Positions 26,701-61,727 of a stretch of 64,000 nt of DNA are shown here, one piece after another. The stretch is from Amphirosellinia nigrospora (lineage: Eukaryota; Ascomycota; Sordariomycetes; Xylariales; Xylariaceae): assembly GCA_004123355.1 (NCBI GenBank), contig SCHM01000002.1, positions 2,728,001 to 2,792,000 on the forward strand, written 5' to 3'. Each line of letters begins with the position of its first letter. The first letter of the stretch is position 1. The notes beneath the pieces are model-generated. The model made no database searches. It saw nothing but the letters and a program-made list of their open reading frames with translations, and was not told where the DNA came from. The position numbers and the translations under genes were made by a program.

Positions 26701-26757
26701 CCCGGAGTCAACGATTTCTTATTTAGGAAGGATCTTAGCTCTAGAAACACTGTTTCG
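26701..26757 (+). repeat. Left edge inverted repeat of the AT-rich block
   Basis: The sequence starting CCCGGAG and containing GATCTTAGCTCTA matches, in reverse complement, 61636-61694 at the far edge: about 45 of 59 aligned positions by eye, including a perfect 13-mer and a perfect 7-mer. Similarity seems to continue weakly inward. No target-site duplication is visible immediately outside. Confidence 0.65.
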
Positions 26758-28122
26758 TGAGTTTGTTTTAGGAGTTATATACTTAATTTAGTATACTAAC
26801 ATATTATATTTACTTTATTTAATTTATTTTTTATATAAAGCTAAACTTTTTTTGTTTTAGTGTAAAGTTAGAACTTAAGTTCTGATTTATTATATTGTAT
26901 GCTTTTTTATTATAATCTAGTTTAAAGTAGAACTTAGGTTTTAATTTATAATATTTGCTATATGTTTTTTTATTATATTAACCTATTAAAAAAAGTACTA
27001 AGGCGATACTAGCTAACAATATAAGCTGGAGTAATTATATAATAAAGTTCGGAGGGAGGAGGGAGAGATTTTAATCGTAGTAACTATTAAATGCCTAGTT
27101 TTTACCTAGATTATATTATTATTAGGCTATAGAGTTTAAGTATTAAATTAAAATATTATTATATAAGTATTATTATTTTTAAGCTTTATAAAATTTTTTA
27201 AGCTAAAATTTTTACCGAAAAAGTAGTAAAGGCGCGTTAATATATAACTAGCTTAATATTATTTATAAATAATATTTATTTTATTTAACTATTAATTAAA
27301 GTTTAAATAAACTAATAATTATTAGTTAAAAATATCGATAATTATAGCGAAGCTTAAGAATAATTTTATTTAGGATATATATACGAACTATAATATATAA
27401 TTATTTAATTTTATAAAGAAACCTAGCTAGTATTTAATAATACTGCTAGGTATATTTATTAAAAAAAACTTAAAAACTTAATATAAGATTATTAGCGATA
27501 TAATTATATTTAATGTTATTTTTAGCGATTTATAATATAATTTAGAAGTTTAAAATTATTATTTTAAAATTAGTTTAAACTATATTATATAATAAAGCTT
27601 TAGTTATATTTGCTATATATATATATTATTAGGTATATTTTAGTAAAATCTAATATTTTATGCTTAGGTGCAGTAAAAGCTTTTATAGTTATAATAATAA
27701 GGATAGCTACGTTAAAGGCGTAAAATATATAGTATTTTAGAAAAATATATAAATATTTTGTTTGCTAAAATAGTTATAATAATTTATTAGCTAATATTAA
27801 AATAAATTTAAAAAATAATCTTTATTAGCTATTAAATAATAGTAATATTACGGCTAATTTATATTATACGCTTATAATTTAGTCTTAATAGCGCTAAACT
27901 ATAAAAACAAAAATTAATTTTAAGTTTTTATATAATAAAATATAAATTTATAAATATAATAAATATAAACTCGAGAATTTTAAATAGTTTAAAAATAGTT
28001 AAATAAAAGTTAAAAGGTTATTTTGTTTAGATAAAATAATAAACAAATAGTTATATAAGTTTACGAAAGTTTATAAAGCTAAAAAATAAATATAAAGCTA
28101 TTTCGAATATAAAAACTATAAT

Positions 28123-28304
28123 ATTAAAGCAATTATATTTTTAATTTAATTACTTTAGCTAATTATAATATTAAAATAATTATATTTCTTAATTTAATTA
28201 TTTTAGCTAATTATAATATTAGATTAATTATATTTCTTAACTTAGTTTTAAGTTTAGTTGCCTTAGCTAACCATAATATTAAAGCAATTATACTTTTAAT
28301 TTAG
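28123..28304. repeat. Tandem repeat, about 47-60-bp unit, four copies
   Basis: Units begin ATTAAAGCAATTATA or ATTAAAATAATTATA and end TTAGCTAA(T/C)(T/C)ATAAT. The copies differ mainly by transitions, plus one internal 12-bp insertion. Confidence 0.8.
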
Positions 28305-29001
28305 TTTTTTTTTTTATATATAAATATTTTTTTTTAATAGAAATTGTTTTTTTTTTTTATTAACTTATTTATAATATTTTTATTTATTAATTTATTTTAT
28401 TATTAAGCTTTGTTTTTCCTAGCTATTATCGAGTTATAAATTATAGTTTTAGTAAAAGCTTTAAATAGCTAAAGTTTTTAAAGTTTAACGATTCGATAAA
28501 AGTAAAAAATATTATTTATTTAGCGATTTTTGAGCTAAGGTTTTATGCCGGCGTATTATTTTAGTCCGAAATAAAGCTTATTATAGTAATATTTATTAAA
28601 AAGCTATTCGAAAAAACTATTAAATTAAAAAATAAAAAGTTTATATTTTTTACGTTAGTATATAATTTTAGCTATTAAATATAATAATAATATTTTGCTT
28701 AAAGTTTAAAGCTAAATATACGTTTTTATAACGTTATAAAATAATTATTTATTTAAACTATAATATATATATTATATTAAGCTATATATAATAAAATATA
28801 AACTAGCGCTAAATTAAAACTAGGACTTAGAATTAATTTTGCTTAAATTTTTATAAGTATTATAAAAACGAACTATATAATAGCGGTGCTCCGAACAGCA
28901 AAAAAAATAGTATTTAGCGTATATATAGGCCTGCTGCTTTTATAAGCTTTAAGGCTATTTATAGTTTCTTTTAAAGTATTATATATTATAGCAAGCTTAA
29001 A

Positions 29002-29145
29002 AAAACTAGGCTTATAAAAGCCAGGCTATTTTAAATTAAAGCTAGGCTATTTTAAACTAAAGCTAGGCCATCCTAAGCTAAAGCCAGGCTATTTTAAACT
29101 AAAACTAGGCTATTTTAAGCTAAAGCTAGGCTATTTTAAACTAAA
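29002..29145. repeat. 21-bp tandem repeat, six copies
   Basis: Six units of exactly 21 bp (GCTAGGCTATTTTAAACTAAA and variants) run from 29020 to 29145, with a partial copy ahead. The unit is a multiple of three and keeps more C and G than its surroundings. Confidence 0.88.
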
Positions 29146-30746
29146 ACGTTAGTTAAGCTATTATTTAAAAATTAATTCGGTACTTATTAAAAATTGTTTA
29201 AATTAAGCAAAAAAAAATTAAGCTTTAGTAGTTCTTTTGCTTATAGTAATATTTTTATAAAATAATTTAGTTAAAAATAATATAAAACGCTAATAATTAT
29301 TTAATATATTAATAAACGTAACGTTATTTTAATATATTAGCGGTTTTTTGCTAAATTATATAAAATAGCTCGTTTAATAATTAACGTTAAATAATCGAAA
29401 AATTTAAAATATATTAAAAAGCGGGTAAAACTATATATTATTTAGTATTTTAAAAATAAAATAAAAAAAGCTAATAAATACGAACTATTAAATTTTAGCT
29501 TTATTAAAATAATTATTAATAATAAATTATATAATTATAAAGCTATTATTATATTTTTATTATTATATTAAAACTATAGAACGTTTTTATTATAGTATTT
29601 TTTAGTAGTTATAGTATTTTATAATATAACGAAAAAAATTTTTTTTTTAATTATTATTAAAAGTTTATTTAAAAAAAATATTTTTGCTTTTTTTTTTTAA
29701 ATATTATTTTTTGCTTCGAAAAATAAAGTATAAATAAAAAATCTTTTAATTTTAGTTAATATTTTTTTTAAAACTTATAAAAATAAATATAATAAATAAA
29801 CCGAAAAATTTAAGCTAAATAAGCTTAATTTTAACTTTATAGAATTAATAATTTTATAATATATAATTTAAGAAAAAAAAATAAAAAAGCGCTAGCTAAA
29901 ACGTAAAATATATTATTAGCGATAATTTTAAGCTTTTTTATATTTTATTTAAAAAATACTTATTATTTATAGCTTTATATAAAAATATAACTATAATATT
30001 ATAATATTATTTAGTTTTAATAAATATTTTAATTAAACAAGTTTTAACCGGTTAAAAATTTCGATAAATTTTATTATATATAACTTTTAATTTAATATTT
30101 ATTAATAATATTTATTAAAACTATAATATAAAAAAGTTAGCTAAAATTTATAAGCAAATATTATTAGTATTTTTTTTATTTTTTTTAACGTTTTTATTTA
30201 AAAAATAAAAAAAAGTCTAGCTTTTTAAAAAAAAAGCGAAAAAGCTATATTAATATTTAAATTTTTTTAAAGTTTTTATAAAATTAAATATATTTTTTTT
30301 TAAAGCTATTTTATTTTAAACTATAAAAAAAAAACCTTAAGAAATTAATTAAAAATAACTAATTAAAATATATAAACTTTTTTAACTTAATAGATTTTAA
30401 TTATAGCTATAAATCTAAATAAAATAAAAACAATATTTAAATAGCTAAAAATTATTAATAAAACTAAAAGCTTAAACAAATATTATATAGCTTTTGTTAA
30501 AATTAACTATATTTTTATAAATTTTATAACGTTCGAACAAGCTTAAAAAACAAACTATAGTTTTATTTATTTATTTTTTACGGAAAACTTGGGCTATTTT
30601 TATACCCGGGCGTAAGCTATAGCTAAAAGTTTTATTTTTAATGCTTGCTCTAAGTTATTATAATCGCGATTATATAAAATAAAAAGCTTTTTTATATATA
30701 AAACGTATAAAAAAGACTTTTTTTTCTAAGTTTTATTTTAAAGCTA

Positions 30747-31560
30747 TTTATAAATATATTATAGATTTTAAAAAAAGTATTTATACTTAGGTTATATTTT
30801 CTAATATATATTTAATAAGCAGGCTTTAAACAATATATAAAAATATATATAAACTTTAAAAAAAATGTTTATACCTAGGTTATACTTTCTAATATATATT
30901 TAGCAAAGCAAGCTTTAAATAATATATAAAAATATATATAAATTTTAAAAAAATATTTATACTTAGGTTATATTTCCTAATAAACGTTTAGTAAAACAAG
31001 CTTTAAACGGTATATAAAAATATATATAAACTTTAAAAAAGTATAACTACTTAAGTTATACTTTTTAATAAACGTTTAGTAAAACAAGCTTTAAACAATA
31101 TATAAAAATATATATAAACTTTAAAAAAAATTTATATTTAAATTATATTTTTTAATAAACGTTTAATAAAATAAACTTTAAATAATATATAAAAAACATA
31201 TATAAACTTTAGAAAAAATATAATTATTAGGTTATATTTCTTAATAAACGTTTATTAAAGCAAGCTTTAAAACTTATATAAAAAACATATATAAACTTTA
31301 AAAAAAGTATAAATATTTAAGTTATACTTAATAAATTTAACGAAAAAAGCTTTAAAATCTATAAAAAAAATATATATACTTTAAAAAAATATAATACTTA
31401 AGTTATACTGCTTAATAAACGTTTAGCGAAAAAAGCTTAAATAATATATAAAAATAAATATATATTTTAAAAAAAGTATAACTACCTAGTTATATTTTAT
31501 AAAAACGTTTAGCGAAAAAAGCTTTAAAACATATAAAAAATATATATTAAGACTAAAAGC
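30747..31560. repeat. Tandem array of about 87-bp units, nine copies
   Basis: Each unit has an ATATATATAAACTTTAAAAAAA start, a CTTAGGTTATA middle and an AATAAACGTTTAG...AAGCTTTAAA end. Unit starts fall near 30747, 30838, 30927, 31015, 31103, 31190, 31279, 31362 and 31447. Later copies become shorter and more diverged. Confidence 0.88.
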
Positions 31561-31884
31561 TTAACGTTTAAATAGTATATTATTTATAAGTTAAATTAGT
31601 TTAACTTTGATTAAAATAGCGCAAGAACTACTTATATATTACGCAGGTCTAGGTTTAATATATTATACAATGCTATTAAAAGTTTGCTAAACATTGCATT
31701 ATAAAGCTAAAATAATCATATAAAGCTAATAAATTTTAAGCAAATATTAAACTAAACTTAAATATTAAAATATTTAGCTTTAATTATAAAAGTTTTTATT
31801 TAAGTTATATAGCTATAAAAAAAAATATAATAAAATTTATATTTAAAAGTAGTTTAATAAAAATAAAATATAACTAAAGCTTAT

Positions 31885-31950
31885 ATTTAAATATTTAAAA
31901 TTTAAAGTTTAATTTAGCTAATAATTTTTTCGGGTTTTTAAAAGCTTTAG
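31885..31950 (+). repeat. Internal copy of the block's right subterminal sequence
   Basis: The phrase TAAAGTTTAATTTAGCTAAT with its flanks matches 61470-61535 in the same orientation, the internal copy being the more RIP-mutated. This suggests two elements of the same family, or a former long terminal direct repeat. Confidence 0.6.
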
Positions 31951-34900
31951 TTTTTTATTTTAATTTTAATATAACTTTTATATTTTTAATTTATAGCCGA
32001 ATTTAAGATTTTTTTTTTATAAACTTTTTAAAATATAATCTTCGAAAAAGCTTAAGGCTATTTTAAATAATATAATAATAATATAATATATTTTAGCTTA
32101 CGAAAATAATCGAGGTAATAAGTTTTTAAGTCCTATAAATTAAAAGTCTATATAGCTTTTATAGCTAGGTTTTATAGCTAGTCGTATATAATAATAAAAA
32201 AAAAGAATTTTAAGCATTAAAAACATAAAATCTACTTTTTAAAGAATAAAAAATTAAATTTATAGCACTTTTAGCACTATTATTATTTATTAGTTAATTT
32301 AAACTATTTTAACTTTTATTTAATCCTTATTATAGCAAACATAAATATAACTAATAATATAGTAAAATAAAAAAAATTATTTTATTATTAAGCTATAATT
32401 AATTAAATAATAAACTAAACAGTTAATTTATTAAGCGTATTAATAAATAAATAAAGTTATAAATAATTTATAAAAATATATTAACTAGCTAACTATTTAA
32501 TTTATTAAGCTATTTTTTAGCTGCTATAATTGTTTAAAAAACTTTAACGCTTTATTATATTAATATAAATAAAAATATAAATAAAATATAAACCAAAATA
32601 TAAATAAAACGCGGGTAAATATAAAAAAAAAACGTATTTATTATAACTATTAATAAATTATATTATATATTAATAATATATATATTTTTATAAGTAATAA
32701 TAGTATAATAGAAAAACTAACTATATAGCTTTTTAATATTTATTTAATAATATATTTTTGCATAAACGCTTTTTTTATATTATTTCAAATATATTAAAAC
32801 TAGCAGCTAATATATATTATTTTAAACTTAACGTAGTTTTGTCGGTAAATAAATTATAATATATATTTTATACATTTTAAGTTTAATTTTAATAAATTTA
32901 TAAAAAGTTTTTATAATTAAATTATTATTAGCTATATATATAGTAATAAATATTAAAGCTACGCCGTTAAATAGTTTAAAATTAAGCGCTTTTATTTATT
33001 ATTATAAATTTTGCTTTTTTTTAGGCAAAAAAAATTATTAAAATGTATTATAAACTATAAATATTTTATATTAATATTTAAGTTTAAATAAATAGCGGAA
33101 TAATATATTTATAAATAATTTTAACTTTTTAATAAATAAATTATTTTAAAAGCTTTAAAAAAAATAGCTATAAATATTATTTAAAAAAGTTCTAATTAGT
33201 TTTATAAGCTAGTTTAATATAAAATTAAAATAATAAACCGATAAGTTTATAATAATAATAATATAAAAAAAAAAAGTTTAAAATTAAGAAAAAAAGCGTT
33301 TTTTTTAAACCGGATTTTAAAAAAAAAAAAAAAAAACAATAAATATTTTAGTTTTATTTTTTAATTTTTTATAAATCTAAATAATAATATATAATAATAT
33401 ACGCTAGCGTTATTTAGCTTTTTTATTAGCTATTATTTATATAATTGCCAGGAAAATTATATAATAATACGTTTTAGTTTATATATATATATTTAAATAT
33501 TTTTATATTTAGCTGTTTTATATAAAAATTATAATATTTTTATAAAAAAAATTATAAAGTAATAATAAATAGCCGGCGTTTTTTTACGCCCGCTATTATT
33601 ATATTAGCGCTAAAAGCTTAATAATTTTAAACGTTTTATATTTTTTAGCTTATTTTAAAAGTATATTAAATAGCGTTTTTTATAATATTAAATATAGTAT
33701 AGCTTTTAGTTATTATTTATAAAATAGCAAAAAAGCAAAAAAATAATAAGTTTTTTTTTATATAGCTTAGCTTTATTAGCGATTTTTAGTTTATGTTTAT
33801 TTTAAAAAACCTATTTAATATATAAAAGCTAATAATAATAATTGTTAGTTTTTATATTATAATTTTATAAAAATAAAATATAAATATTTATTATTATATA
33901 AATAACTAGTAAAGTTATTTTTGTAGCTTTATATAATTATATAGCTATATATAAAAGTTTTTTTGTTTAATCTGGTTTTTAATTTTTATAAGCATTTAAT
34001 ATAGCACTAAGTAATAAGCGCTATAATAAACGGTTGCTTTTTTTATTTTAACTAAAGCTAATATTTATAGCAGTTATTATTTATTTTTGTTTTTTAATAT
34101 ATATAGTTATTTTTGCGCTTTTTTTTACTGTTTAGTCCGATATTTTATATTTTAAAAGTTTAATTAAACTAAAATTATTTTAAAAAAAAACTAAGCTTTT
34201 TTTTATATCGGAAAAATTTTTTTTAATATTAGTTTTTTATCGACCTATATATTTAGTTTATATATACGATTAATTATTTTTTTAATTAAATAGTTTTAAT
34301 TAATTTTATTTTAGCTATTTTACGCTAAAGCTATTTATAAGCTAAACTTTATAATATATATATATAGCTTTTTTATATTTTATTATTTTATTTTATAGCG
34401 GTTTTAAAACGTTATATTTTATTAATTAATATATATTATTAAAAACTATTTTTAGTTTAATAAAATAATTTTTATAAAAATTTCTAAAAACTAAACGTTT
34501 TAACTTTATTAATATAAGCTTTTTTTATTTCGTAAATATATATTATTATTATTATTTTTAATAAATTAGCTTTTATATAAAAAAATAATTGTTCGGCCGC
34601 TTATTTACCCGTTTTAAAAAATTTAATAGTTTTATTAAATTTTTTATTTATTATAAATATAAACGTAAGCGTAAATATTTTGCTAATTAAAAACTTATAT
34701 AACGATTAATATTTAAACTACTTTTTTTTTTTTTTATTGTTTAGTTTATAATAAATAACGCTTTTAAAGCGTTTATATTATCGGCTATATATTAAAAGTT
34801 TTTTAAATATTTTATTTTTAGTAACGCGTATAATTTAATAATATATTTATACGTTAAATAAAGCTATATAAAAAAGTATTTAAGTTATAGCGGGCTATTT

Positions 34901-36283
34901 AGCTTTATAATATATTAAAAAATTATAATTTTAATTTTATTAAATATTTAAACTACAGATTAAAAGCTTTTAATAAAACTAAAAATTTAATTGTTTTTAT
35001 TTTTTAGTTTTTAATTTTATATTTTTTTTTATAATATTACTAAGATTTTATTATATAATTTTTTTATTTATTATTTAAAAATATATATTTTTTTTTTAAA
35101 GCTTTTTATTTAATACTAAGTTTTATAAGTATAATATTTATATTTAGAAATTTTTAATATTATTTTAATAATATATTGCTTTTTAAAATATATTTATAAT
35201 AGTTTCGGTTAAATTATTTATTTTATTAAATATATATAATTTTTTCAAAATAAAAAATATATTTTATTATTTTTAATATATTAATAATTTTAAAAATAAT
35301 AATATTTATATATAATATTAAAATAATAATATTAAAAATAATAGCTTTATTATTAATAAGCGTATTATTAAAAGTTAATATTTTTTATATATAAGTTTTT
35401 TTATGCTTAAAAATAAATATAAATAAAAAGCTAAAAATATTTTTATAGCTAATTAGCTAGATTTTATAGATAATATATTATTAACGAAGTTATATTAAAT
35501 ATATTTTATCGAAAAAAATAAGCTATAATTATATAGCGAATAAAAATAACTAAATAATTATTTAATATATTAAGGCTAAAAAAGTATAGCGTAAAAAAAT
35601 ATTAAATAAATATACTAAATAGTTAATAATAATGTATATTACGAAAGTTTTATTAGCTTTTTATAAATTTTTTATAAAAGTTATAAAATATAAAAAAAAA
35701 AAAAAAAAGCTATAATAATTATTAAGATTTTAGTTTTATATATAAAATATTATAATAGCTATTTTATTATTTATTTAAAAGTTTATTTTTTATTTTTTTT
35801 TTTTAATAATATATAATAAAATATATTAAAAGTTAAAAAATAATACTATTTTAAAAATTTTACTATATTTATTTCAAAAATAAGTTTTATATAAGCTTAT
35901 ATAAACGCGCTAAAAAGCTAAGTTTTATTTAAATATAAAGCAGCTAAAATAAATATTTTTAATATATAAAAAAAAACTATTAACTTATTATTAAAAACTA
36001 GTTAAAATTATATATAAAATATTATAGTTATAATAATTAATATAATTATATATTTTTATATAAATAATATAATTATAATATTATATTAAAAAATAATAAG
36101 TATATATTTTTTTAAGTTTATAAGTTTTATTTTTTTAATAGCGTTAAATTTTATATTAAATGTTTAAACGCTACGCTTTTGTTTAAATAAACAAAGTTAA
36201 ATATTATTTTTTTGCTATAATATAATATTATTAGTTTTAACGTTTTTATTTTTATTATTATAATTAATATTATTTTGTTATTA

Positions 36284-36332
36284 TTTCGTTATTATTATTG
36301 TTATTATTATTATTATTATTGTTGTTAGCTTA
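36284..36332. repeat. (TTA)n microsatellite
   Basis: An imperfect run of TTA/TTG triplets of about 16 units lies 200 bp from the left LTR. Confidence 0.8.
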
Positions 36333-36527
36333 TTATATTATTATCTAGCCCAAGTAGTATTATATAGCTTATTTAAGAAAGCGTTTTTATTTTATTAGTT
36401 AAACTAAAAAATAATTAATATATAATTTATTTCGAAATATTATTATATAAAATCTATAGCTATTTTAATTTTTTAATATATTAAACTATATAATAATTTT
36501 GAATTTTTTACTTAGATTTTAGTTATA

Positions 36528-36732
36528 ACTATTACACTTTACACAAAATAGAAAGCGTAGCTCTAAAATAGTGTTTATTCGTACTAAATCTACAAGTAAA
36601 AAAGGAATATATATAAAGAACCTGCGCAGCAGGTTCCGAGCTAAATACTATAGTGTAGCCCGCAAGGGCCATAGCCATAAAAATTACGGGTGCTATAGCA
36701 CCAGCTACTTAGCTAGCCACCACCCGTAACTA
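36528..36732 (-). repeat. LTR (3' LTR of the minus-strand Gypsy fossil)
   Basis: This 205-bp copy matches 43065-43269. It includes GCAGGTTCCGAGCTAAATAC and CTTAGCTAGCCACCACCCGT. It retains CpA/TpG far better than the interior. Confidence 0.9.
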
Positions 36733-39700
36733 CCCCCCCTTAAAAAAAAATAGCTTATTTCGAAATATCTACTATACTCGAACTAAGTACTTTCTAATAA
36801 AAAAAAATTACTTCAAGTTTTTACTAATTAATTAATCGCAAAGCTTTCGTTCCATAAATCATCGAACCAGTTTTTCTACACTTAATTATTATAAATCCCT
36901 AACATATTTGCCTTTATTAAACCCGCCTACGCTTTCTCTTCTTTAAACTTTATATAACTAATTTATTATTATCGCGTACAATAAGTTAAATTCATCCTTT
37001 ATAGCAGCTTCCTTTTATACGTTCAATCGTAATAACAGCCCCGCTATATCTAAGTTAAATTCGTAATACTTTTACAGCATTTTAGTACTATTTTTAAAAT
37101 TCTCGGCTAAATACTACTCATTATCCGCCTCTTATTTTTTCTACATAACCTAATATTATAGCTTATAGTAATAAATCTTAAATATACGTACTTTTTCAAC
37201 AACGAACTTTTCTTTATCGCTTTTAAGCTCTATTATTTTACCTTAAAGTTTTTACCGCTTACTCGGACAATAAATTATTTAAATACTTCTTAAAACAATC
37301 TATATAATATTTATTAGTCGCCCTCTAAAATAAAAATACTTCTAACGTAAAAATATTACTAATATTATATTCTTTAATCTTAAACTTTTACTACGTTATA
37401 AAATAATCTAGCTTATTAAACAGTTTATTAGTTTTCTAGGATTATTTTTTTTTAAAATAAAAATATAATCCCTTACGCCAAAATTAAAATTTTACGTCCT
37501 TAATTCGCCTATTGCGTTATATAATCCTGCGCATACGCTAAATATTATTTAGCAACTCTACATATTCCGCGATTTAACATATTCTATATTACGCGTTTCG
37601 CGCAAATTAGCTTCGCATCATAATAAATCGCATATCTTATTTTTAGCTATCTTATTCTCCTAGTCGAAATAAAACAGCATAAAAAAACCTATCTCTATTT
37701 CATAAAGTACCATACCCGTTAACTTATAAGCAGCGCAGCCTACGCATAATCTATAGCTAATATACAGTCTAACTAATTTTTAGTAATAATTTATATATAG
37801 CTTTAACCGCTAATTTAAATATTCGTTTATAATTTTAGCCTAGCTTACAGTTTTATAATACTAGCAAACGCCAATATATCACTACTCCTATAATTTTATA
37901 TAACTTATTTATAAAAAACAATATAAACTATAACCCTCGATTAAATATAAGCATAGTTAAAACGCTAAACATACAAAACGGGCCTTCGTAATATATACGC
38001 GCAACATTAGCTATAATAGCTTTATTATACACAGCATAGTTTATATACGTTTATTTAATCTATTTACTATAACAAGCGCGTTATTATAACTATATTATCC
38101 TTAAATATTTGTTTAAAATCAACTATATTTTTAAATTTTATTTAATATCGATAAAAAAGTTAGCTTTCTTAGCGTTTTATCCTTAAAACTTTTATAAAGC
38201 AGCATTTTATACAATTATCCATATATTTATTATAATCTTTATTAAGCCTAGCTAAATACTTTGCGCTAATAAATCGTCGCGTTTTATTTTTTTTTAAATA
38301 TATAGTTAGTATTTTATTATATACTTTAAATTAGTCGAATATAGAAATAAAAAAATTAAATATAACTAGCTTCTTTTAATATATAATTAGGTTATTTTTA
38401 AAACTCTAAAAGTTAAAATCGTCGCTTATATAAATACAAGCTTTTTAGCAATAGATTTTTATACTAAATATTATATAATTCTTAACTAAAGCCCAATCAA
38501 TTAATTAAAAACCTAATAATCTTTTAGCTTTTTATAAAGCAACAATATTAATACTATAGCCAAAAATTATATTATCTAAACTAGCGCGACTATACTTTAT
38601 ATAAGTTTAAAAAAAGTTAAATAGCGTTAAACTTTTTGCTTTTTTTTCTAAATACTTAGTTTTTTACTTACGCAACAATATATCAGCGATTATATTCTCC
38701 TTTTTTAAACAATAAATAATAAATAATACTCCAAAAATAAATAATTTATCCAGCTTACTATAAATTATATTATTTTTTTACTAAAGTATTTTAAAGCTTT
38801 ATAATTAATAATAACTAAAAATAGTTCTAATCGCGGTTTTTAATTAGTTTTAGCTACTACTCTTTTAACGTTAAAATAACAATAAACATTTCTTTATTAA
38901 ATATTCCGTAGTTTAACTTAGCATTATATAAAGTTTTAAAATAATAGCTTATAAAATACTATTTACTATTATTATATAATTATATAGCACTTTAGCAGCT
39001 ATTTTATTTAAAGCGTCCGTTTTTACCTTAATTAGCAGGCTATAATTATAATATCACAAAATTAGCAATAAAATTAAATATTTTTTAGCCTTTTAAACGC
39101 TTTATCGTACTTTATTATCCAATAAAACAGTTTATTTTTCTTAAAAATTTATTAAAAAATAATAATATAACTATATTTATAAACAAATTTACAATAAAAT
39201 TATAAAAGCCTAAAATAAATTATATACTTTTAATAATAATTAAAAGCGCTTAATTATATATTACTTATATTTTCTTAAAGTTTACTTATACGCCTTATAT
39301 ATTTATAATATACCTAAGGAATTTAGTTTCCGTAATATAAAATTCTAATTTTTTAAAATTTACTTATAGCCCAGTATCCTTTAGCTATTAAAAAACTTTT
39401 TTATATATATTTTATATTTTTTAAAATTATTTAAATAAATTAAGATATTATTTACATAAATACTATAAAAATCGTTAAAATAATTAAACAAAATATTATA
39501 TAATATATTACAAAAATAAAAATTTATTAATAAAGCTAAAAACAATATTTTATACTAATAAGCTTTATTTTAGTATAAAATATAATAAAATCTTTATCGC
39601 TAGCGCTTATCCGGATATAATAAAATGCTTAACGTACGTTAATTTTATAAAAATTTTCGCTTTAGCAATATAATAAAGTTTTTTTAATTAAAAGCAAAAA

Positions 39701-50300: not shown

Positions 50301-51310
50301 TAGCTTTATTATATTATAAATATTATAATAAAAAATATTTATAAGTATATTTTTATGCCGGATATATTTTATTAAAATAAAGTTATTTTTTTATTATAAG
50401 CTTTAAAAAGAAAAAAATAGTTAAAAAAAATAATATTAAAAATCGCTTTTAAATAATTTATAAGCTTATAAAGCTACGTAAATAACGTAAAAAACGTAAA
50501 AAACGGAATAAAATAAAAAGTTAGTTTAAAAAACTAATAAAGCTATTTTAAACTTAGATTATAAGCTTATAAGCTTATTAAAACTTTATAAATATATTAA
50601 CCATATATTATTTGTTTAAAAAAAAAGAATTTATAAATTTTATTATTATTTTAAATTAGGTATTTAAAGCTTTAAAGCTAAAAATAGAAATTAATAAAAA
50701 AAATAATTTCGCGTTAATTATATTATTTAATTTGGAATATTTTTTATAAAAATATATATATAATTACTAAAAACGTAGTATTATAGTACCCTAAGGTAGT
50801 TAAATAAAACGTAGTAAAAAATAGTAGTCTTAATTTTGCTGCTTTTATAAAGTATTAATAATATTTAAATATTTATACTAATATAGTATAAAAAACTTCG
50901 TTTAATATATTTTATATATTTAGGTAATTTTATATAATAGTTATGGATTATAGTACTTATAATTTTTATTTGCAATAATTATTATTTGTAGTAAATAATA
51001 TTTGTTAGTAAATAAAGGTAGGTACGGGTAATAAATGCACTTGCCCTATTAAATCGCGAATATATAAGTAGCTACTTATAGCGTAAGGTTAGATTTTCCT
51101 TTTTTCCTTTTTATTTATAGATTTTATATGTAATATATTATATACTAGAGCCTTGTTTTTTTATAGTATATAAAGCGTAATAGTTATGTTTTATATAAAA
51201 AATAAAGGGAATTTTTTAATTAAAAGGAATATAATATATTAATAAGAATTAATAAAACTTAAAAACTTCTTAGCTTGTATATTGAATATAAAAGTAAGAT
51301 ATAGAATGTT

Positions 51311-51440
51311 AAAAATAAGGATTAAAGACTAGTTAAACAAAGAAACTCTATGTATATTGCTATATAGTTACGTAAAACCTACAGAGATGATTTTATTAGT
51401 TTTTTATGTAATAATAGATATTTATACCTTACTTTTATAA
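51311..51440 (+). repeat. Dispersed repeat, copy A
   Basis: It begins AATAAGGATTAAAGACTAG and matches copy C (59724-59835) in the same orientation and copy B (53694-53806) inverted, at about 70-75% identity by eye. A and B face each other 2.4 kb apart and could be ends of one inverted-repeat element. Confidence 0.65.
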
Positions 51441-53693
51441 GGATTGTAATATAAAAAGAATTTTGTTTATATTTTTAAAGTTTGTTGTTAGATAAAACTA
51501 TACTGTTTTAGGACTTAAAAAAATTAATATATATTTTTTGTTTTATTATAAAACTAAAATAAGACCTATAATAACTATTTGTTTTTTAAATATAATAATA
51601 AATTAGTAAAAATAGGTAAAAGTAAGTGTAGCTAAAATAGTATGTTTAGTTTTTAATAAAGATATAGCTAGATATATATTTTTTTATGCTTTTATTTTAT
51701 TTATTTTGGTTTTTTATAAGCTATACTAGATTTAGAATATTGTTTATTGTTTTTTTTTTGCTTTTTGTTTACGGGCAAAGTTAATTCGGCTTTTTTAAAA
51801 GCAGTTAAATATATTTTATAGCAAAAAACAATTTATAAATAATTTTTACTAAAAATAAAAATATTAAAATTATAATAATAAACTAAATTATATATAACTT
51901 AAATATGCTTAAAGCTAAAAAAAAAATTATAAAATGCTAATTTTATGCTAATATTATAATTAAGTTTAGCTATTATAAAATAATATTAAATATTTTAAAA
52001 AAGCTAATATTAAGAACGGAAGTATAACTAAAGCTTAAATAATTAGCGCTATTATTTAATATTAATATAAAGCTATTAACCTTAATAATATAAGGCCTAT
52101 TATAAAAACCTTAACGTTGATAAAACCGCTAACAAAAATAAAACTATTAATAAAAGCACCGATAAAGTTTTAGAAACCTTTTTTTATACTTCGAACCTAG
52201 GTTTTTTAACGTTTGATAACATGCTTTTTTTAACCGGCGCTACTACTAAGTATAGTATGTATATTTTTATAATTTTAGAAAGTATTAGCTGTTAATATTT
52301 ACTTTATTAAAATAATTGCCTATAAGCTTTGTTTAAGCATAAGCCCGAAGTCTTTAGTTTTGTTATAAACGTGTATACTAAGTAATTAGGTTTTTTTTAA
52401 GTTTACGCTATTTTTCTAAAATATAAAAATTATATATTTAATAAAAAAAAAACAGAATTTTTTATATTAAAAATAAAAATATAAAATAAACGGCCTAACT
52501 AGCTTTATTATTTATTAGAACGTATTAAAGCTAAAAATATTATTAGATATATTTAATAAAATAATTAAAAATTAATATAATTTAATATTTATATATAAAA
52601 ATATAACTATAAAATTAATAAAGCTGTTTAATAAATCGGCTTTTATTGTTTATATAGTTATTTTATTTTTTAATTTAGCGATATTAACGTTAAAACGTTA
52701 TTAAAGCTTTATATAAATTATACTTTAAATAGGATATATATTATAAGTTATAAGATTAAATAGATTATTTTTTATAAAGGTTATAATAAAATATTATATA
52801 AAATATACTAAGCTATAGAATTAAAAGTAAGACTTAGTAAGCATAGGTATAATAGATTTTGGGTTTAAGTTTATTTAATCGATTATTATTTGCAAATGGG
52901 CGGAGCCCTTTTAATGCTTACTTTTAAATTTATTAATAATTTTTAAATCCGAATTTTTAAAATTATGTTCTAAATTTTTATATAAAATTTTTCGGTTATA
53001 GTTGCTTAGCTAGATTTTTTCTTTTTAAATTTATTTTAGATTTAGCTATTTAGTTTTAATTTTTATTTAATATATTTATTATAGTTATTTATAATATTTT
53101 TTAGCTGCGGTTTTTTTATTTTATAAATGGTGTTAGTTTTATTTATGCTTTATTTGCTTTTTTTTATTTAATTAGCTTAGTTTTATTTTTTTGCTATTAT
53201 TAGCGGCTATAATAATCTTAAATTGTTCGAAAAGGCTTTGTTTAGTACGGATTTTATTAAATAAGTTTATTATTTTATAACGTAAGTTAGCTTATATAGC
53301 TACGTAGTTTTTTTTTATTTAAGGAGTAAAAGAAAAAGACCGTATTTATATAATAAGCTTTTGTATGTTATTAAAACATTTAGTAAGGTTGTTGATAGTA
53401 ATATTAAGCTTGGATATTATTAATTAAATGATTTTATTATTATTTTTTAATTTAGGTTAGTATTGTGTAGTTATGCTTAAATTTTTTGTAAAGTTGTAAA
53501 AAGCTAGATTTGTCCGATTTTTTGTTTTTTATTAGCTTTGTTACGCGATTTTTTTAAGAAATAAAATAGTATAAACTTGTTTAGTTTTTACGTTTAAGCT
53601 TTTATTATTTTTTTATTTAAAGGGTAGTATTATATAAGCAAAAGCAGCTATATGCTAAAAAATAATGTCCGGTGTAATAAAGAGGCTTTGCGA

Positions 53694-53806
53694 ACTTTGT
53701 AAAAGTAAAGTATAAATATTTTTATTGTACGGAAAACTAATAAGGTTATTTCTGTGGGCTTTATATAACTATTTAATTATATAAGTAGAAAGTCTCTTTG
53801 TTTCCA
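53694..53806 (-). repeat. Dispersed repeat, copy B (inverted)
   Basis: The reverse complement contains ACAAAGAGACTTTCTACTTA and ACTTTACTTTTACAAAG, matching copy A closely. It ends 81 bp before the left LTR of the plus-strand Gypsy fossil. Confidence 0.65.
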
Positions 53807-53887
53807 ATAACATAGGTTGGTTTAATAACGTGTGGCTAGTGACTAGGGGTAACGTATGCCTCCGTGGTATCTATCCTTAAAACCATG

Positions 53888-54097
53888 TGTGGCTCCAGGG
53901 TAGCAACTGGCAAAGCCCTAGCGGGCACTACAAGCCAGCCCCACCCCACAGCTATAAGTATTTAGCCCACTACAAAAATTAGACTTAACCCTTTATTTAA
54001 TCAACCAACCTAGTATATTAAGAACTAATCTACACAGCCTAAACTATAATAATAAAAGCCCCGTAGGTTACTTAATATAGGTTGCCAAGCACGTATA
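53888..54097 (+). repeat. Left LTR of the plus-strand Gypsy fossil
   Basis: This 210-bp LTR contains GGGTAGCAACTGGCAAAG and ATAGGTTGCCAAGCACG and has CpA-rich sequence well preserved. It pairs with 59443-59652. Confidence 0.92.
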
Positions 54098-57000
54098 AAT
54101 AGCTATTTGCGCAGCTTTACAGCTTTTATTTAAAACTAGTTGCGCGATTATAAACAACCCTATAGCCGACCAACCTATAAAAATCTAACCCTACGATTAC
54201 GCCAATCAAATACCTTATCGAAACCTATCCTAAAAAATATACCTTATAATATCTATCCTATATATAATAGCGGATTTTACGGGAGCCTATTTCGAAATAA
54301 AAAGTAGCGGCTTTATAATAAATACAAGCAGCCTAGCGTTAAATAACTTAATAAATATTTTACTAGCTATAAATATAGCAAGCTATAATACCTGTATTAA
54401 TATATTAGCAATTAATATAGCTAAACGAATCGACTAATTAAAAACGAAAATAAACTTATAATTCGAAGCTATACTAATAGAAATAAAAAAAGGTTTTTAA
54501 GAACTAGGTTTATAAAACTAAGGTAGTAGTACTACAACTATACTAACAAGTGCAACAATAAGACTAATAATAACCCTAGCGCTACTAGCTCTAGCAAATA
54601 TATTAGCAAGTATAATAGTAAACTTTTTATACGTATTTGTAAGTATTAAAAAAATAGATAAAGCATATATGCGATAACTAATTAGCGTAATTAATTAAAA
54701 ACGATTAAAAAACCTTTCGTTAAACCTATAGAAATATAAAAGCTTAAATTTTATTTAAACCTAATAAAAACAGCAAATTTAAGCTATTTTTTTTAACGTA
54801 TTTTTAGCAAACAATGCTATTAAGCTAAACAAGTGTAAGAACAAAAATAAAGTAATTATACTATTTAATTTACGTTTAATTCGAGCCGATTATACTATAT
54901 TAAATAAAGTACGCTAAATCTAGGTACAACTAATATAAGCTTTAATGCCTTATGAATTATAAACTAAAAAAGTTATGCTTAAATTAATAAGTGATTTTTA
55001 ACAAGTAGCGCTATTTATTAAAAATAACAATATAGCAGCCACTTAGATCGACTTTTTAGAAATAATAATCTAAATATTAAATATTTATAACGTATTGTAT
55101 AGCTTTTTAATAGTATTTATAAAACTATTGCTAGTTTAAAACGAAATATATATAAGCTATTTTTAAAAACTATAAAAAGTTTTTTATTAACTGCTAAGAA
55201 ATACTTAAAACATTTAGCAAATATATAATATTATAATTAATAAGCTTATTATATATACCCTAAGTATTTAGCTTAATATAAAGCGTTTTAGCAAAAAATA
55301 AAACATAAGTTAAATTATAAAAAAAACAATATAAGTATTAAAAATAATTATTATAATTTTTATAAAACTAAAATTTATAGTACCCCGAGATTATTATATA
55401 ATTTTAAAATATAATAATACTTTACTATAATTATAATATTACTGGAAGTATAGCAGGTAAACCTGCTGTAAGCTAGATCTAATTAGTCGATAATACAAAA
55501 ATAACCTTGAAAGTACTAATATTTACTATTTTAAACCTTTGTACTAATAACCGGAAGGTTAGCTATATTACTAAAGTTAATAGTAATAATATGGAATAAT
55601 AAAACTGCAATAATAAATATGTAGTAAAAATAACAAATAACGTATATTTTAATTATAGCAAGCCTGGCTATTAGGCTAAAGATTGCTGCGAAAAAGTATA
55701 ATAGTTTAAAATAACAAAACTATAAAGCTAGTCCGGCTAATCTGTTATGATTAAAAGTACGCTATATTGTAATAATTTAGCTAATAAGTTTAAAAAATTT
55801 AGAACTAAATATAAGTTTTTTAAAAGCAAGCTGTAAAAGTGAGTATATTTTACGGAAAATAATAATAAAAACTCCGAAAAACTTAAATAAAGTGCTACGG
55901 AACGCTTAAAAAACGATTAGATCGATTAAAAACTAAAAAATTTATTCAATAAAGCTTAAGACAGCTTTGTTTATATAGTTAAATTGGATAAAAGTAATAA
56001 AATAACCCTAAAAAAAATAAGTTAAAATATAGTTATAACGACCGCTATAACTTGTTTTAAGCCCGACTAAATAACGGTAATACGTTTATAATATTTAGGA
56101 CTACGGTTATATAAGTTGTTATATTTCGCAATTATTAATTTTAAAGCTTTAGCCCTATAAATTATAAAATAAAATATTATATATAGCATTAGAAAAATTA
56201 GACTAATAGTTATAAAAAACTACGAAATTATAGTATAGTTTGTAATAATAAAAAGTACTATAGAATTTTAGACCGTAATTAGAAGCGTTATATTAAACCG
56301 TATGTTTTTTAATAATATAATTTTAAAGAAGCGTATTTTTTATAAATAAAGCAGCGTTTTCGGCTATATAAAAAATACCGAAACAATTAAACTAATAAAA
56401 TTTAACAGAGCACTTTTATTTGAACTTTTAAAACGGTTATTAACTAGTATAGCTATAAAAATAACCTATAACGCGAAAAAAATAAAAAAAACAAAAGTAA
56501 TTTAGTATAAAAATATGCTAAAAGACCTTTAAATAGCAAATAAATAAGCAAAACTAGTAAAACGATTCCCCGGCCTATTTAATCTAGCTAAATAACGTAC
56601 TGATATTATAGTACGTATAAAATATTATATTGATACTAAAGATAGCCTACTAATAAAGCTACTATTTTGTAAGTATAGCTTTATATAAAAAAAAGCTATA
56701 AAAAATTCGTTAAAGCATACTTAAGTATTTATATTAAAAAAGGTATAAGATTATAAGGCGCGCTAATATTATTAACCTTAAAAAAGCGACCTAGCGAAAC
56801 TACTAAGCTTAACTTTAATAACTAAGAAAATATTATATAACGATTTTATTATAATTATAAAAAACTAAATAAATTACGAAAAAACAAGCTTACTTGTTAC
56901 TAAACGCTGCGGACTAAATATAAAGGGCCGTAGGTTATAAGTAATATATTTTCGTAGATTTTAAAAATAAATATTAGTATATAGGAGTATATAACCTTTA

Positions 57001-59442
57001 CTGCAAAAAAATAGCATTCGTAACACCTTTCGGGATATATAAATAGCTAGTTATATTTTTTGGACTTTATAACGCACTAGCTATTTTTTAGGCTTTAATA
57101 AAAGAAATCGTAAAGCTTTTTAAAGAATAGCTAGCAAGCTTATTCGATAATATTTATATTTAAGGAAAAACGAGGGAAAAACTATATTAATAGTGCTATA
57201 TATTATTCGAACAACTAGCGTAATATAGTATAATAATTAACCCTACGAAAACCTTAATATTTGTTAATTAAAATATATTCTTAAGATTTTATATATTTTA
57301 AAAAGAATTAAAGCAAACTTAATAAAAATAGCCGTAATAAAAGATAAACCGATGCTAAAAATAACTATTAAAATATGCGGATTCGCGAATATAGCAAGCT
57401 ATTTAAGCACTTAATTAATAAATATTCGCTAATTGTAGCATTATTTATAATATTAATAAGAAGACCGAAAAACTAATTAGTTATATTAAATATAAAAGCT
57501 TAAAAAGCTTAACAAACGATTAAAAATACGATAACTATAATATTAGTAATTAAAGCATTTAATTAAAAGTTGCTTTTTATAATAGATACGGATTTTAGCT
57601 AACTATATGTCGGGGTATACTTAATATAGCCGTTTTTATAGAAAAAAAATAATATTTTATTTAATAATATATTTTTCTAAAAAGCTAAATAATTATTAAA
57701 CGCGTTATTTAGTATAAGAATAAAAGCTTTTAGCTATTATATTAATATTATAATACTAGAAGCACTAAGTAAAAAGAAAAAAATAACTGTTTGTACTAAC
57801 TATAAATTATTACTTACGATAAAAAGCAAATCAAAACAACTAGTATAAATAGTTCGATTTTTAAATATTATTAAGCATTATAGTATATGAATTATATATC
57901 GTATAAGTAAATTAAACGTGCTAGCTAATTAGCTATCGAGACTTTTTAAAATAATTTTTTTAATAATAGAAATAACTTTAAAACGTAAATATTACCGAAT
58001 ATAGAAAAGCAGTTAGTTAAACTGCTGTAATAGCTAAACCGTATAAACTTATAAGCTATATTTAAGTTCTTAAAATTCGATAGCAAGTTGCTATTAAATT
58101 TAGAAGCTTAGTAGGTAATTAAGCACTTTATTATATATAAAAAAAAACTATATAAAATAGTTTAATATTAACGGACCCCTAAAAACCCCTTATATTTTGT
58201 AAGAATAGCATATTAAGCGGTAGCGCTTTTAAAAATCCCCGAAATACTAGAATTACTGTAGAAGGTTAAAATATATACGTTAACTTAGGGCACGCTATAG
58301 TTAGCATTTTAATACGCGAAATTAATAAGCAGTATTAATACCCGGAGATTACGCTAATAGCATAGCAAGCTGTAGTAGAATATAAGCAATATTAATTAAT
58401 AAAGTTATTACTAACGATATTACTAAACTTATAATTTATAGTATTATTACTACTGCTAATACGTTGGGTAATAAACTATATATTTATAGTATAACTAAAA
58501 ATATTAGTATGTATAAAATACGCTATAATATAAGTAAAAGTAGCTATAATACCCGATATATTATTTTTAAGCACGATACTGTTAATTATTAAAATCGAGG
58601 AAACTTTTAGGTACTTAAAGGAATAAATTAATAATAATAGAAGCGCGTTCGTAGGTAAAGAAATAATTTAATAGTATTAAGGCAAGGGATTTATAGTTAA
58701 GCTTATTATATTTAGAAGACCTAGAGGCAATAGTAAAGTAGAAAAAGTAAACGGAGACTTTAAGCAAATTATATTATAAGAAGGTCTAGTATATAAATAC
58801 CTTAATGTAGCTACTTTGTTATAAGTAGCTGTAAATATTTACAATTGGATACCGAAGTTAAGTAGCTATAGCAGCTATTTTTTTTATTTGGTATTTAACT
58901 TTTTTAATAGTAGTTATTTGTTGAAGTTTTTAAATACGTAAGGGACTTAACTAAGGGGGAAAAAGTCGAATTTTAGCAAAGCTTAGTAAAAAATTACGAA
59001 GTATTTATAGTAAAGAACTATTTTAATAGTTTAAAAGCTTTTAAAAACTAGATTAAAGCTTATTTATAGGAGAAAAAAGGATTAATTTAAACTTATGTAA
59101 CCGGAGACTAGGTACTGCGAGTACGCTAGCGTAGTAATAAAATAAAACCTTTTTATAACGGACTATGGGCTATAGCAAGTTGTTATTATAGCAATATTTA
59201 TAGGTTACGGAGCTCTGGCAGAATTTAACTGCTAAGTAAATATAATAGAACTAACTTGTTTCCTGCGTATAGCAATAATAGCTATTTTATACGGAGCTTA
59301 TGGTACGCTAGCTAGACGATGCTGGAGAACGATCGGAGGCGCTTAAAGGCAATAATAAAGTAGCTAAATTATAAATAGTTTTATTATAAAAATACTGGTT
59401 GAGATAGATAACTAAGGGTAGTTATTTGAGGAAGGGAGTGGT

Positions 59443-59652
59443 TGTAGCTCTAGGGTAGCAACTGGCAAAGCTTTGGCGGGCACTACAAGCTAGCCCCACC
59501 TTATAGCTATAAATATTTAGCCCACTATAGAAACTAAACTTAGCCCTTTATTTAATTAACCAACCTAGTATATTGAGAACTGATTTATATAGCCTAAACC
59601 GTAATAGTGAAAGCCCTGTAGGTTATTTAATATAGGTTGCCAAGCACGCACA
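59443..59652 (+). repeat. Right LTR of the plus-strand Gypsy fossil
   Basis: This 210-bp partner of 53888-54097 has the same length and about 85% identity by eye, with differences mostly transitions. It ends GCACGCACA. Confidence 0.92.
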
Positions 59653-59723
59653 CATGTGGGCTAAATATTCTAGCGGTCAGTACCTATGTTTAAGATCTAT
59701 TTCTTTGTTGGTTAACTAGTGCC

Positions 59724-59835
59724 AAGAATAAGGATTAAAAACCAGTTAAACAAAAAGACTTTTCGTATATAGCTATATAGTTATATAGAGCTTACGGAAA
59801 TAATTTAATAATAAATGTTTACCTTGCAAAAATTA
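59724..59835 (+). repeat. Dispersed repeat, copy C
   Basis: It starts AGAATAAGGATTAAAAACCAG, 72 bp after the right LTR of the Gypsy fossil. Same orientation as copy A, inverted relative to copy B. Confidence 0.65.
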
Positions 59836-61469
59836 TAGCAAAAGGTTTTAATAAAAGGTATTTTATAAAGTATTAAGAAATTATTAAATTAACGGCTAAT
59901 TTACTTTTAATAATGTTAGCTATTTTTTTAGCCGATATTTAAGTTTAGGAAATTTTTAGCTTTATATAATATTTAAAATATAAATTAGTAATATTTATTT
60001 TTTAAAACCTATAAAAACGTTTTTTTAATTTTAGCACTTTTTATTAAAATTCTAGCTCGATTTTATAGCTATTATAAACTAGAACTTTACTATTATGTTT
60101 TTTTATTATTAATCTTTTATTAAAATTATAAAGTTTATTATTAATAAAATAGATTTTAATACTATTTTTAATTTAGTAAAAGCTTTTAATTTATTAAAAG
60201 CGTTTTTAAAAAAAAAAGCATTTAAAATATTATATATATTTATTTATTAGCGGTATTTTCGGAAGTTTTCCGAAAATCTTTTAGTTTATTATATAAAGCA
60301 TTTAAAATAAATAATTTTTTTAGCTTAAATAAAATAGCTAATTATTAATTTATATTATTTTAGATTATTGTTTTTTTTCGGGGTTATTATTTATTTTTTT
60401 AATAATTTAAATAATAAAAACGCAATATTTATAATATTTTTTTATTTTTATTATTTTGCGAACTTTAAAACTATATTATTAGCGTTATAATTAAGTTTAA
60501 AGCGATTTTTAGCTAATATAAACTATTTTTAATTATTTATAGCTTACAGCGTATAGATTTTTTATTTTTTAAAAATAAAAAGATTTTTTTATTTTAAGTT
60601 GTTTTTATAAATAGCCGGTTTAGCGTTTATAAAATTATACTAAATAGATCGATTAATATTTAAAAAAAAGTTTTAAAAATCGAACATATAATTATTACGT
60701 TTTTTATTTTAAAAAACCCGGCGTATATTTTTTTTTATTCGTAAAGCAATATTAACTTATTTGTTTTATATATTTATATTTTTTATAAAAAATATTTTGC
60801 TAGTTTAATATTAATTTTTGCTTTTTTTAAAAAATATTATATATTTTAATATAAAATTATAAGTTTAATTAAGCTTTATATTTATTAAAAAAATATTTCT
60901 AAAGCAAACTATGCTGTTTTTTTTTTCGCTATAGCTTATAATATAATAAGCTTAATAAAAAAAATTCTTATAAAGCTAGAACGTTATACAATAAATAAAT
61001 AGTAGCTAATAATTTAAACGTTATTATTATTAATTATTTATTAAAAAAAATATACAACTATTAAAAAAACGGATTAATAAACGCTTTTTTTTTTTAATAA
61101 AATATAAAGCTTAAACAATAAATATTACAATAGCTATAAAAAAACGCGCTATATTTAACTATTTTAACGTTAATATATATTATTTTTAGCTATATAAAAA
61201 CCCGTTTTTATAAAACTACGTTAAGGCGAAAAAATTATATAATATTTTAGATTTCGATAAAAAAACTAGCTAAACGTCCAACTATAAATAATTATTAACG
61301 TTATACTAAATTATACTAACGGAAAAATCAATAACGGTATATATTATTAAGCGGACTATTTATTTAAAATACCGTTTTTATAATAATATTACGTACAAAT
61401 ATAATTACTTCGTTTTATTACTTTTATTCTAGAGTAAATAATAAGCTGCGGTTAATATGACAAAGTGCT

Positions 61470-61535
61470 TAAAATATAAAGTTTAATTTAGCTAATAATC
61501 TCTTTAGGGTCTCTGGTTTCCTAATTCTAACTTCA
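61470..61535 (+). repeat. Right subterminal sequence, also present near 31.9 kb
   Basis: It shares TAAAGTTTAATTTAGCTAAT and flanks with 31885-31950; this copy is less mutated (CTCTTTAGGGTCTCTGG follows). Confidence 0.6.
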
Positions 61536-61610
61536 AACTTTTAGTAAAAACAAAAAAAATGTTTAAAATATACATACTACGTTAGCATATTTAACGCTTA
61601 TTAACTTAAT

Positions 61611-61654
61611 AGCTCTAAAAACATATCTTTAAAGCTCTAGAAACATGTCTTTAG
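61611..61654. repeat. Two 22-bp direct repeats with inner dyad symmetry
   Basis: AGCTCTAAAAACATATCTTT and AGCTCTAGAAACATGTCTTT stand back to back. The second unit, with the following AGAGC, forms an imperfect palindrome (GCTCTAgAaACATGTctTtAGAGC with 9 of 12 half-site positions pairing), and it sits against the right edge repeat, as transposase-binding sites often do. Confidence 0.7.
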
Positions 61655-61694
61655 AGCTAAGATCTTACCTAAAATAGCAAATTATGCCTCCGGG
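61636..61694 (-). repeat. Right edge inverted repeat of the AT-rich block
   Basis: The reverse complement starts CCCGGAGGCATAATTTGC and contains TAAGATCTTAGCTCTA, the partner of 26701-26757. It ends 33 bp before the stop codon of the HMG-box gene. Confidence 0.65.
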
Positions 61695-61727
61695 AGCTTA
61701 AGAAAAAAGGAGAAAGGTAAGTCAAAA

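What the first reader, a model, noticed from the sequence alone, without database searches (positions are those of the whole stretch)
26701..61694. 35-kb RIP block is bounded by an inverted repeat at its outer edges
26701-26757 and 61636-61694 are inverted copies (about 45 of 59 positions by eye, including a perfect 13-mer GATCTTAGCTCTA and 7-mer CCCGGAG), and both lie exactly where composition switches from host to RIP type. A random nest of retrotransposons would not be expected to have matching inverted ends. This could be a very large TIR element, a TIR transposon later filled by retrotransposons, or two inverted copies of one small element marking the edges.
Basis: partly seen in the sequence, partly recalled or inferred. 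Interest (0 to 1): 0.72.

Follow-up and report, generated by a model that had tools for sequence, protein, structure and literature searches.

The report
Giant mutated mobile element, 22.5 kb
The odd AT-rich block is one copy of a very large (about 22.5 thousand letters) dead jumping element that recurs about twenty times in this fungus-like genome with the same two ends, was later wrecked by what looks like the genome's own repeat-mutating defence, and in this copy was also hit by two smaller retrotransposons.

Summary
The edges are inverted copies (score 50; best of 2000 shuffles 34). In the same genome the left edge has 23 matches and the right edge 22 primary ones; 18 of 23 left edges have a correctly facing right edge within 130 kb, 15 of them within 50 kb (random: mean 0.5, maximum 4). 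The six tightest full-size copies, read inside, are colinear with the window block. The block is a ~22.5-kb element, limits 26691-61704, into which two LTR retrotransposons (~6.7 and ~5.8 kb, each with a short target duplication) jumped. Transition-dominated differences and very low G+C indicate RIP after spread. Seventeen of 17 testable insertion sites show no target duplication; the outer 10 bases of the two ends differ. No protein domain is recognisable in three copies, but the control shows RIP would hide one. Best mechanism: rolling-circle-like DNA transposition, inferred; superfamily undetermined. Copy-length matches were found on C4, C6, C8, C10 and C3 (apparent duplicate of the C4 end), not on C1 or C5.

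The parts
26691..61704 (+). whole block: one copy of the ~22.5-kb element plus two nested LTR retrotransposons
   Evidence: homology limits against other copies, edge pairing, net length 22501
26691..26790 (+). left terminus: tip (C)AGCCCAACC, CCCGGAG at +10, 13-mer GATCTTAGCTCTA at +40, then short tandem units (GTTTCGTGAGTCT-like) whose number varies between copies
   Evidence: tandem units read by eye
61605..61704 (-). right terminus: tip TTCTTAAG (reading inward), CCCGGAG at +10, GATCTTAGCTCTA at +40, then ~21-base tandem units
   Evidence: tandem units read by eye (L016)
26691..36529 (+). element, first segment (RIP-type mutated, 14% G+C), includes ~88-base tandem array at ~30737-31558
36530..43268 (.). 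nested LTR retrotransposon 1, ~200-base LTRs, target duplication ATAAC/ATAGC (36525-36529 and 43269-43273); no recognisable protein
   Evidence: LTR alignment and uninterrupted sites in four other copies, letters checked, absent from the six copies read
43269..53889 (+). element, second segment (19% G+C), includes ~81-base tandem array at ~49806-50339
53890..59652 (+). nested LTR retrotransposon 2, ~210-base LTRs, target duplication CATGTG (53884-53889 and 59653-59658), weak reverse-transcriptase RNase H match (E 0.0022, below the curated cut-off)
59653..61704 (+). element, third segment with right end

Best explanation
Shown: the block is one copy of a dispersed family of ~22.5-kb DNA elements with fixed, inverted-motif-bearing ends; the family occupies about 20 sites, the copies read inside are strongly mutated in the manner of RIP, and in this copy two LTR retrotransposons inserted into it. 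Inferred: the family moved as a DNA transposon whose transposase recognised the subterminal CCCGGAG and GATCTYAGCTCTA motifs and the short tandem units beside them. Inferred and less certain (about 0.4): because the two tips differ from each other, ends are exact, and insertion makes no target duplication and shows no clear target preference, it moved by a single-strand, rolling-circle (HUH, Helitron2-like) route rather than by DDE cut-and-paste. Its genes, if it had any, could not be read. The confidence given is for the structural part.
For: Edge pairs: 18 of 23 left ends face a right end within 130 kb, 15 within 50 kb, against a mean of 0.5 at random. The six tightest full-size pairs span 22.0-23.8 kb. 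These six were read inside and align end to end with window segments 26691-36.5k, 43.3k-53.8k and 59.7k-61704 at about 75-88% identity in the longer pieces; transitions outnumber transversions from about 2:1 in pieces that span tandem arrays (393:207) to 38:1 (192:5). Flanks differ between sites, so these are insertions, not segmental duplications (exception C3/C4 start, two shared flanks). Contrast at the ends: in 20 of 20 fetched left ends the bin 380-480 bases inside is 4-27% G+C against 31-57% in the ~400 bases outside; 19 of 22 right ends show the same kind of switch. No TSD: best consistent count for k=3 is 2 of 17, equal to shuffled pairings (mean 2.1); the two LTR inserts in the same mutated DNA do show TSDs, so TSDs would be visible. 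Outermost 10 bases of the ends match at 2 positions, while motifs at +10 and +40 are shared.
Against: No transposase, HUH or helicase domain found: six frames of three copies against Pfam gave only chance-level entries (E 0.13 and 0.8), and Helitron_like_N is not found anywhere in the genome, though nothing rang in its control genomes either. Insert 1, clearly LTR-shaped, also gives no Pfam match, so this negative is weak. The subterminal motifs lie at the same distance from both ends, unlike the asymmetric ones described for fungal Helitron2. No 3-base periodicity of retained G/C was seen in the interior, so it may be largely non-coding. Three of 22 right ends do not show the G+C switch: L016 (the 3-kb copy), L023 (abuts another copy), L028 (AT-rich on both sides). 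Ten of the 17 other paired loci were not read inside, and one more (the 3-kb one) was read and is internally deleted. No empty-site strain was available.
Confidence: 0.9

Rival explanations
1. A classical TIR (DDE) cut-and-paste transposon of unusual size whose target duplications are absent or were lost.
For: Inverted motifs at identical distances from both ends and a short internally deleted copy with both ends, C6:5846729-5849807, 3 kb, look like transposase sites and a MITE-like derivative.
Against: No consistent duplication of 3-10 bases in 17 of 17 sites; tips differ in 8 of 10 outer bases. DDE elements normally make TSDs and have matching tips (general knowledge).
Confidence: 0.27
2. 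A Starship- or Crypton-like tyrosine-recombinase element.
For: The genome is rich in DUF3435 genes: 36 matches; such elements are large and fungal.
Against: By position none of the 36 matches lies in element sequence shared between copies; the one cluster inside a copy's span (C10:493926-495223) lies in a ~30-kb stretch absent from the copies read. No direct repeat at the borders. RIP could hide a captain.
Confidence: 0.1
3. A linear DNA plasmid or virus-like molecule with inverted ends, captured at breaks by end joining.
For: No TSD and no clear target preference; partial tip duplications beside the ends at 3 of 17 sites (window left, C4_9588 left, C6_4084 right; seen by eye, chance not computed) resemble filler DNA.
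Against: Ends are exact to 1-2 bases at 17 sites, whereas end joining usually trims (general knowledge); no viral or plasmid domain in Pfam scans, a weak negative.
Confidence: 0.15
4. A chance nest of retrotransposons with coincidental or independent small edge elements.
For: Two LTR elements are indeed nested inside.
Against: Interior colinear in six other copies; 18 of 23 left edges paired.
Confidence: 0.01

Closest known systems
Helitron2-type fungal Helitrons (FoHeli3-FoHeli5 of Fusarium oxysporum; PMC5148889, passages seen)
   Same: Helitrons make no target duplication; no insertion preference could be established for that group; short inverted repeats near the ends (13-16 bp there, 13 bp here); dissimilar tips.
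   Different: 9-11 kb there against 22.5 kb here; other tips (TGCCT / CTCCTGT there); asymmetric repeats there, symmetric here; Rep-helicase gene there, none recognisable here.
Starship elements (PMC12506042, passages seen)
   Same: Very large mobile DNA element in a filamentous fungus; this genome carries DUF3435 genes.
   Different: No DUF3435 found in the element, no direct repeats at the borders, about 20 copies, smaller than the 170-196 kb example in that paper.
ToxhAT/ToxTA, 14-kb transposon of wheat pathogens (PMC6737239: search listing with start of abstract only; renamed in PMC12506042, passages)
   Same: Large DNA transposon of filamentous fungi; its paper treats inverted repeats and RIP (term counts in the listing).
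   Different: TA target duplications reported there; none here. Sequence similarity was not tested.

Membership tests
Helitron2 / Helentron | no target-site duplication | tested here: met
   no consistent TSD in 17 of 17 copies; equals shuffled pairing
Helitron2 / Helentron | asymmetric terminal inverted repeat (3' one ~20-40 bp inside) | tested here: not met
   motifs at +10 and +40 from both ends
Helitron2 / Helentron | Rep (HUH) and Pif1-like helicase gene | tested here: inconclusive
   no Pfam match in three copies; PF14214 none (control silent), PF05970 only on C1; RIP hides domains
Helitron2 / Helentron | terminal hairpin(s) | tested here: inconclusive
   single-strand folds of the window's ends: z +1.05, -0.89, +0.98, -1.93
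Helitron1 | 5'-TC ... CTRR-3', insertion between A and T | tested here: not met
   tips (C)AGCCC and CTTAAGAA, no A/T preference
Starship | DUF3435 captain near the 5' edge | tested here: inconclusive
   36 matches in the genome, none in shared element sequence, but RIP could hide one
Starship | direct repeats at the borders | tested here: not met
TIR (DDE) DNA transposon | inverted repeats at the very tips | tested here: not met
   2 of 10 outer bases match
TIR (DDE) DNA transposon | target-site duplication | tested here: not met
TIR (DDE) DNA transposon | DDE transposase | tested here: inconclusive
   no Pfam match in six frames of three copies; KDZ family absent from the genome but its control was silent too
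RIP-inactivated repeat | transition-dominated differences between copies and depletion of CA/TG | tested here: met

The most novel reading that the evidence does not exclude
A previously unnamed superfamily of giant (22.5-kb) DNA transposons that inserts without target duplication or clear preference through dissimilar tips with symmetric subterminal recognition motifs, and whose spread was confined to one half of the genome (C4, C6, C8, C10 and not C1, C5), pointing to chromosomes of different history within one genome.
Probability: 0.25. Interest if true: 0.7.

Novelty: new variant of a known kind. Interest (0 to 1): 0.45.

Why it matters
In a genome with RIP-type mutation it shows that a long AT-rich block can be one giant transposon copy rather than a random retrotransposon graveyard, and gives end sequences by which such blocks can be recognised. 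Exact ends without target duplication are rare among large eukaryotic DNA elements (general knowledge), and the chromosome-restricted distribution makes a testable statement about the history of this genome's chromosomes.

Tried and rejected
Pfam over six frames of three copies (C6_7791, C4_3426, C4_9588) found no transposase (the only two entries were at E 0.13 and 0.8, chance). The same scan of the two LTR inserts found only an RNase H relic in insert 2, so RIP'd DNA defeats this test.

Stop-density and 3-base periodicity tests for coding stretches: no consistent long signal in the element. Insert 2 does keep periodicity (chi-square up to 41), so the test can work at 25% G+C. Peaks in the element: L056 4201-5100 (47, 41) is a simple (GCAATA)n repeat; near window 51.6-52.3 kb two of the three copies tabulated show a peak (L056 23 and 21, L059 43) and L056 a minus-strand frame with few stops, but the window itself does not (8-12) and the pooled test does not. 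A coding relic there is possible; it matched no Pfam family.

DUF3435, KDZ, Helitron_like_N and PIF1 families in the whole genome: none in shared element sequence; for KDZ and Helitron_like_N the control genomes were silent too.

Rfam on the window: nothing. Hairpins at the tips: not better than shuffles, except a modest fold of the right end's tandem units (7 of 200 shuffles as good).

Target duplications of 3-10 bases at any offset within 8 bases: none consistent. The pair C4:6394659/6471586 was dropped from the 18 pairs because its right tip is missing; 17 were counted.

Host identity was not determined ('fungal' is my inference from RIP-type mutation, DUF3435 and genome size). No empty site could be checked: no related genome is held.

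Full report
Observation. The edges at 26701-26757 and 61636-61694 are inverted copies (local score 50 against at most 34 in 2000 dinucleotide shuffles, and the best of 2540 comparisons within the window). From these true ends CCCGGAG begins at +10 and GATCTTAGCTCTA at +40 on both sides, whereas the outer 10 bases match at only 2 positions; 39 of the first 60 positions match without gaps. The base composition changes from host type to strongly AT-rich, CA/TG-depleted sequence at the ends.

Do the edges recur as pairs? The window lies at C4:2728001-2792000 of a 48.1-Mb, 11-contig genome. The left edge has 23 matches, 22 of them over at least 74 of 81 query bases and one partial (C1). The right edge has 26 matches, of which 22 are primary and 4 are short secondary ones. 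Eighteen of 23 left ends face a right end within 130 kb, 15 of 23 within 50 kb; placing the 22 right ends at random on the same contigs gives a mean of 0.5 and a maximum of 4 in 2000 trials. The five unpaired left ends are two on the 18-kb contig C3 (same flanks as the start of C4), one at C4:26765 that faces the contig start, one at C6:6065137 with right-end matches at C6:6107936-6108483 that stop short of the tip, and the partial C1 match, which I could not fetch. Paired spans are 3.0 kb (an internally deleted copy), then 22.0, 22.3, 22.5, 22.8, 23.8, 23.8, and 29.8 to 117.7 kb. Around the ends G+C switches in 20 of 20 fetched left ends and 19 of 22 right ends; the three exceptions are the 3-kb copy, one end that abuts another copy, and one (C10) that is AT-rich on both sides.

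Interior. Of the 17 other paired loci, the six tightest full-size ones and the 3-kb one were read; ten were not. The six are colinear with the window in three segments, ~26691-36530, ~43265-53828 and ~59690-61704, at about 75-88% identity over the longer pieces, some with inserts of their own of up to ~1.8 kb; one (C4_28) keeps ~100 more bases around the second break. Transitions outnumber transversions in the long pieces, from about 2:1 where a piece spans a tandem array (393:207, 532:212) to 38:1 (192:5); within the arrays, where register is uncertain, some short pieces have more transversions. G+C is mostly 5-20% per 500 bases in these copies and 14-19% in the three window segments. This is the pattern of repeat-induced point mutation acting after the copies had spread. 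The window copy differs by two inserts. Insert 1 (36530-43268) has ~200-base long terminal repeats and a 5-base target duplication (ATAAC/ATAGC); insert 2 (53890-59652) has ~210-base repeats, a duplication CATGTG, and a weak RNase H match (E 0.0022, below the curated cut-off). Taking their lengths away leaves 22501 bases.

Insertion mode. For 17 pairs with both tips present the flanks were compared at all offsets within 8 bases: no consistent duplication of 3-10 bases (best 2 of 17 at k=3, shuffled mean 2.1; k=2 is uninformative since it reaches inside the element); the most informative flanking column near the ends has 0.39 bits, against 1.55-1.87 in most columns of the tips. The LTR inserts inside the same mutated DNA keep visible duplications, so the absence is not a RIP effect. 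At three of 17 sites part of a tip is repeated just outside the element (window left CAGCCC, C4_9588 left AGCCCAACC, C6_4084 right AGCTTAAGAA; seen by eye, chance not computed). Next to the shared motifs both ends carry short tandem units whose number varies between copies (by eye).

Coding content. Six frames of three copies scanned against Pfam gave only two chance-level entries. The control is poor: insert 1, plainly LTR-shaped, also gives nothing, and insert 2 only a relic. Stop density and periodicity give no consistent long coding signal; a hint near window 51.6-52.3 kb in two of three copies is not borne out by the window copy or the pooled test. So the enzyme is unknown and the negative is weak. 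DUF3435 has 36 matches in the genome; by position none lies in the shared element sequence. One cluster (C10:493926-495223) lies within the span of the C10 copy but in a stretch of about 30 kb that the copies read lack.

Mechanism. Exact ends, dissimilar tips, shared subterminal motifs, no target duplication and no clear target preference argue for a single-strand, rolling-circle route as in Helitron2-type elements, whose FoHeli3-5 group shows 13-16-bp inverted repeats and no established insertion preference (PMC5148889, passages). Against: the symmetric position of the motifs and no recognisable Rep-helicase. I put this mechanism at about 0.4, an unusual TIR element at 0.27, end-joining capture of a linear molecule at 0.15, a tyrosine-recombinase element at 0.1.

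Distribution. An interior query (44000-45200) has 22 matches at E <= 1e-40 (14 on C4, 5 on C6, 2 on C8, 1 on C10); these contigs hold 22.7 of 48.1 Mb (47%); 40 of 49 candidates were scored. The left-end search, in which all 23 candidates were scored, agrees: 22 full ends on C3, C4, C6 and C8, and one partial on C1. If copies were placed independently, 22 of 22 would have a probability near 7e-8 (my arithmetic); copies near contig ends may not be independent. C1 (at least 13.5 Mb) and C5 (at least 7.2 Mb) show only short partial matches (in some only 40 of 120 and 40 of 422 candidates were scored). I cannot explain this.

Verdict. It is a very large DNA element family without target duplications, of undetermined superfamily, and RIP-mutated in each of the seven full-size copies read (window included).

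Noticed in passing
genome contigs C4, C6, C8, C10 versus C1, C5: All 22 interior matches listed (40 of 49 candidates scored) lie on C4, C6, C8, C10 (47% of the genome); C1 and C5 show only short partial matches. Unexplained.
   Followed up: partly
C3 (18134 bases) and C4:26000-29000: C3 carries the same two left ends with the same flanks as the start of C4 (L043/L054, L048/L049): probably a duplicate or alternative version of that contig end.
   Followed up: partly
C9, C10, C11, C6:207-583 kb: Many DUF3435 (Starship captain-type) matches, some with long open frames, mostly on C9, C10 and the start of C6; the small contigs may be accessory chromosomes.
   Followed up: no
window 61465-61536: A ~72-base unit near the right end also occurs at 14 dispersed places on C1, C4, C5, C6, C9 at 78-81% identity, and about 65-70 bases here are missing from five copies: perhaps a small mobile unit.
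   Followed up: partly
window 53695-53828 and 59690-59800; 51310-51450; 33857-34002: A ~110-base repeat occurs in several places in the element, once as an inverted pair that LTR insert 2 splits; similar stretches lie on C5, C6, C9, C10 and others: perhaps a MITE.
   Followed up: partly
C4:3598222-3634091: This copy's middle piece matches in the orientation opposite to its ends, suggesting an internal inversion.
   Followed up: no
L073 (C6:5845729-5851729): 3-kb internally deleted copy with both ends; it holds an ~0.8-kb stretch of host-like G+C with two 170-base direct repeats, 99% alike.
   Followed up: partly
C4:26765 and C4:28614: Two left ends lie head to head about 1.85 kb apart near the contig start.
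   Followed up: no
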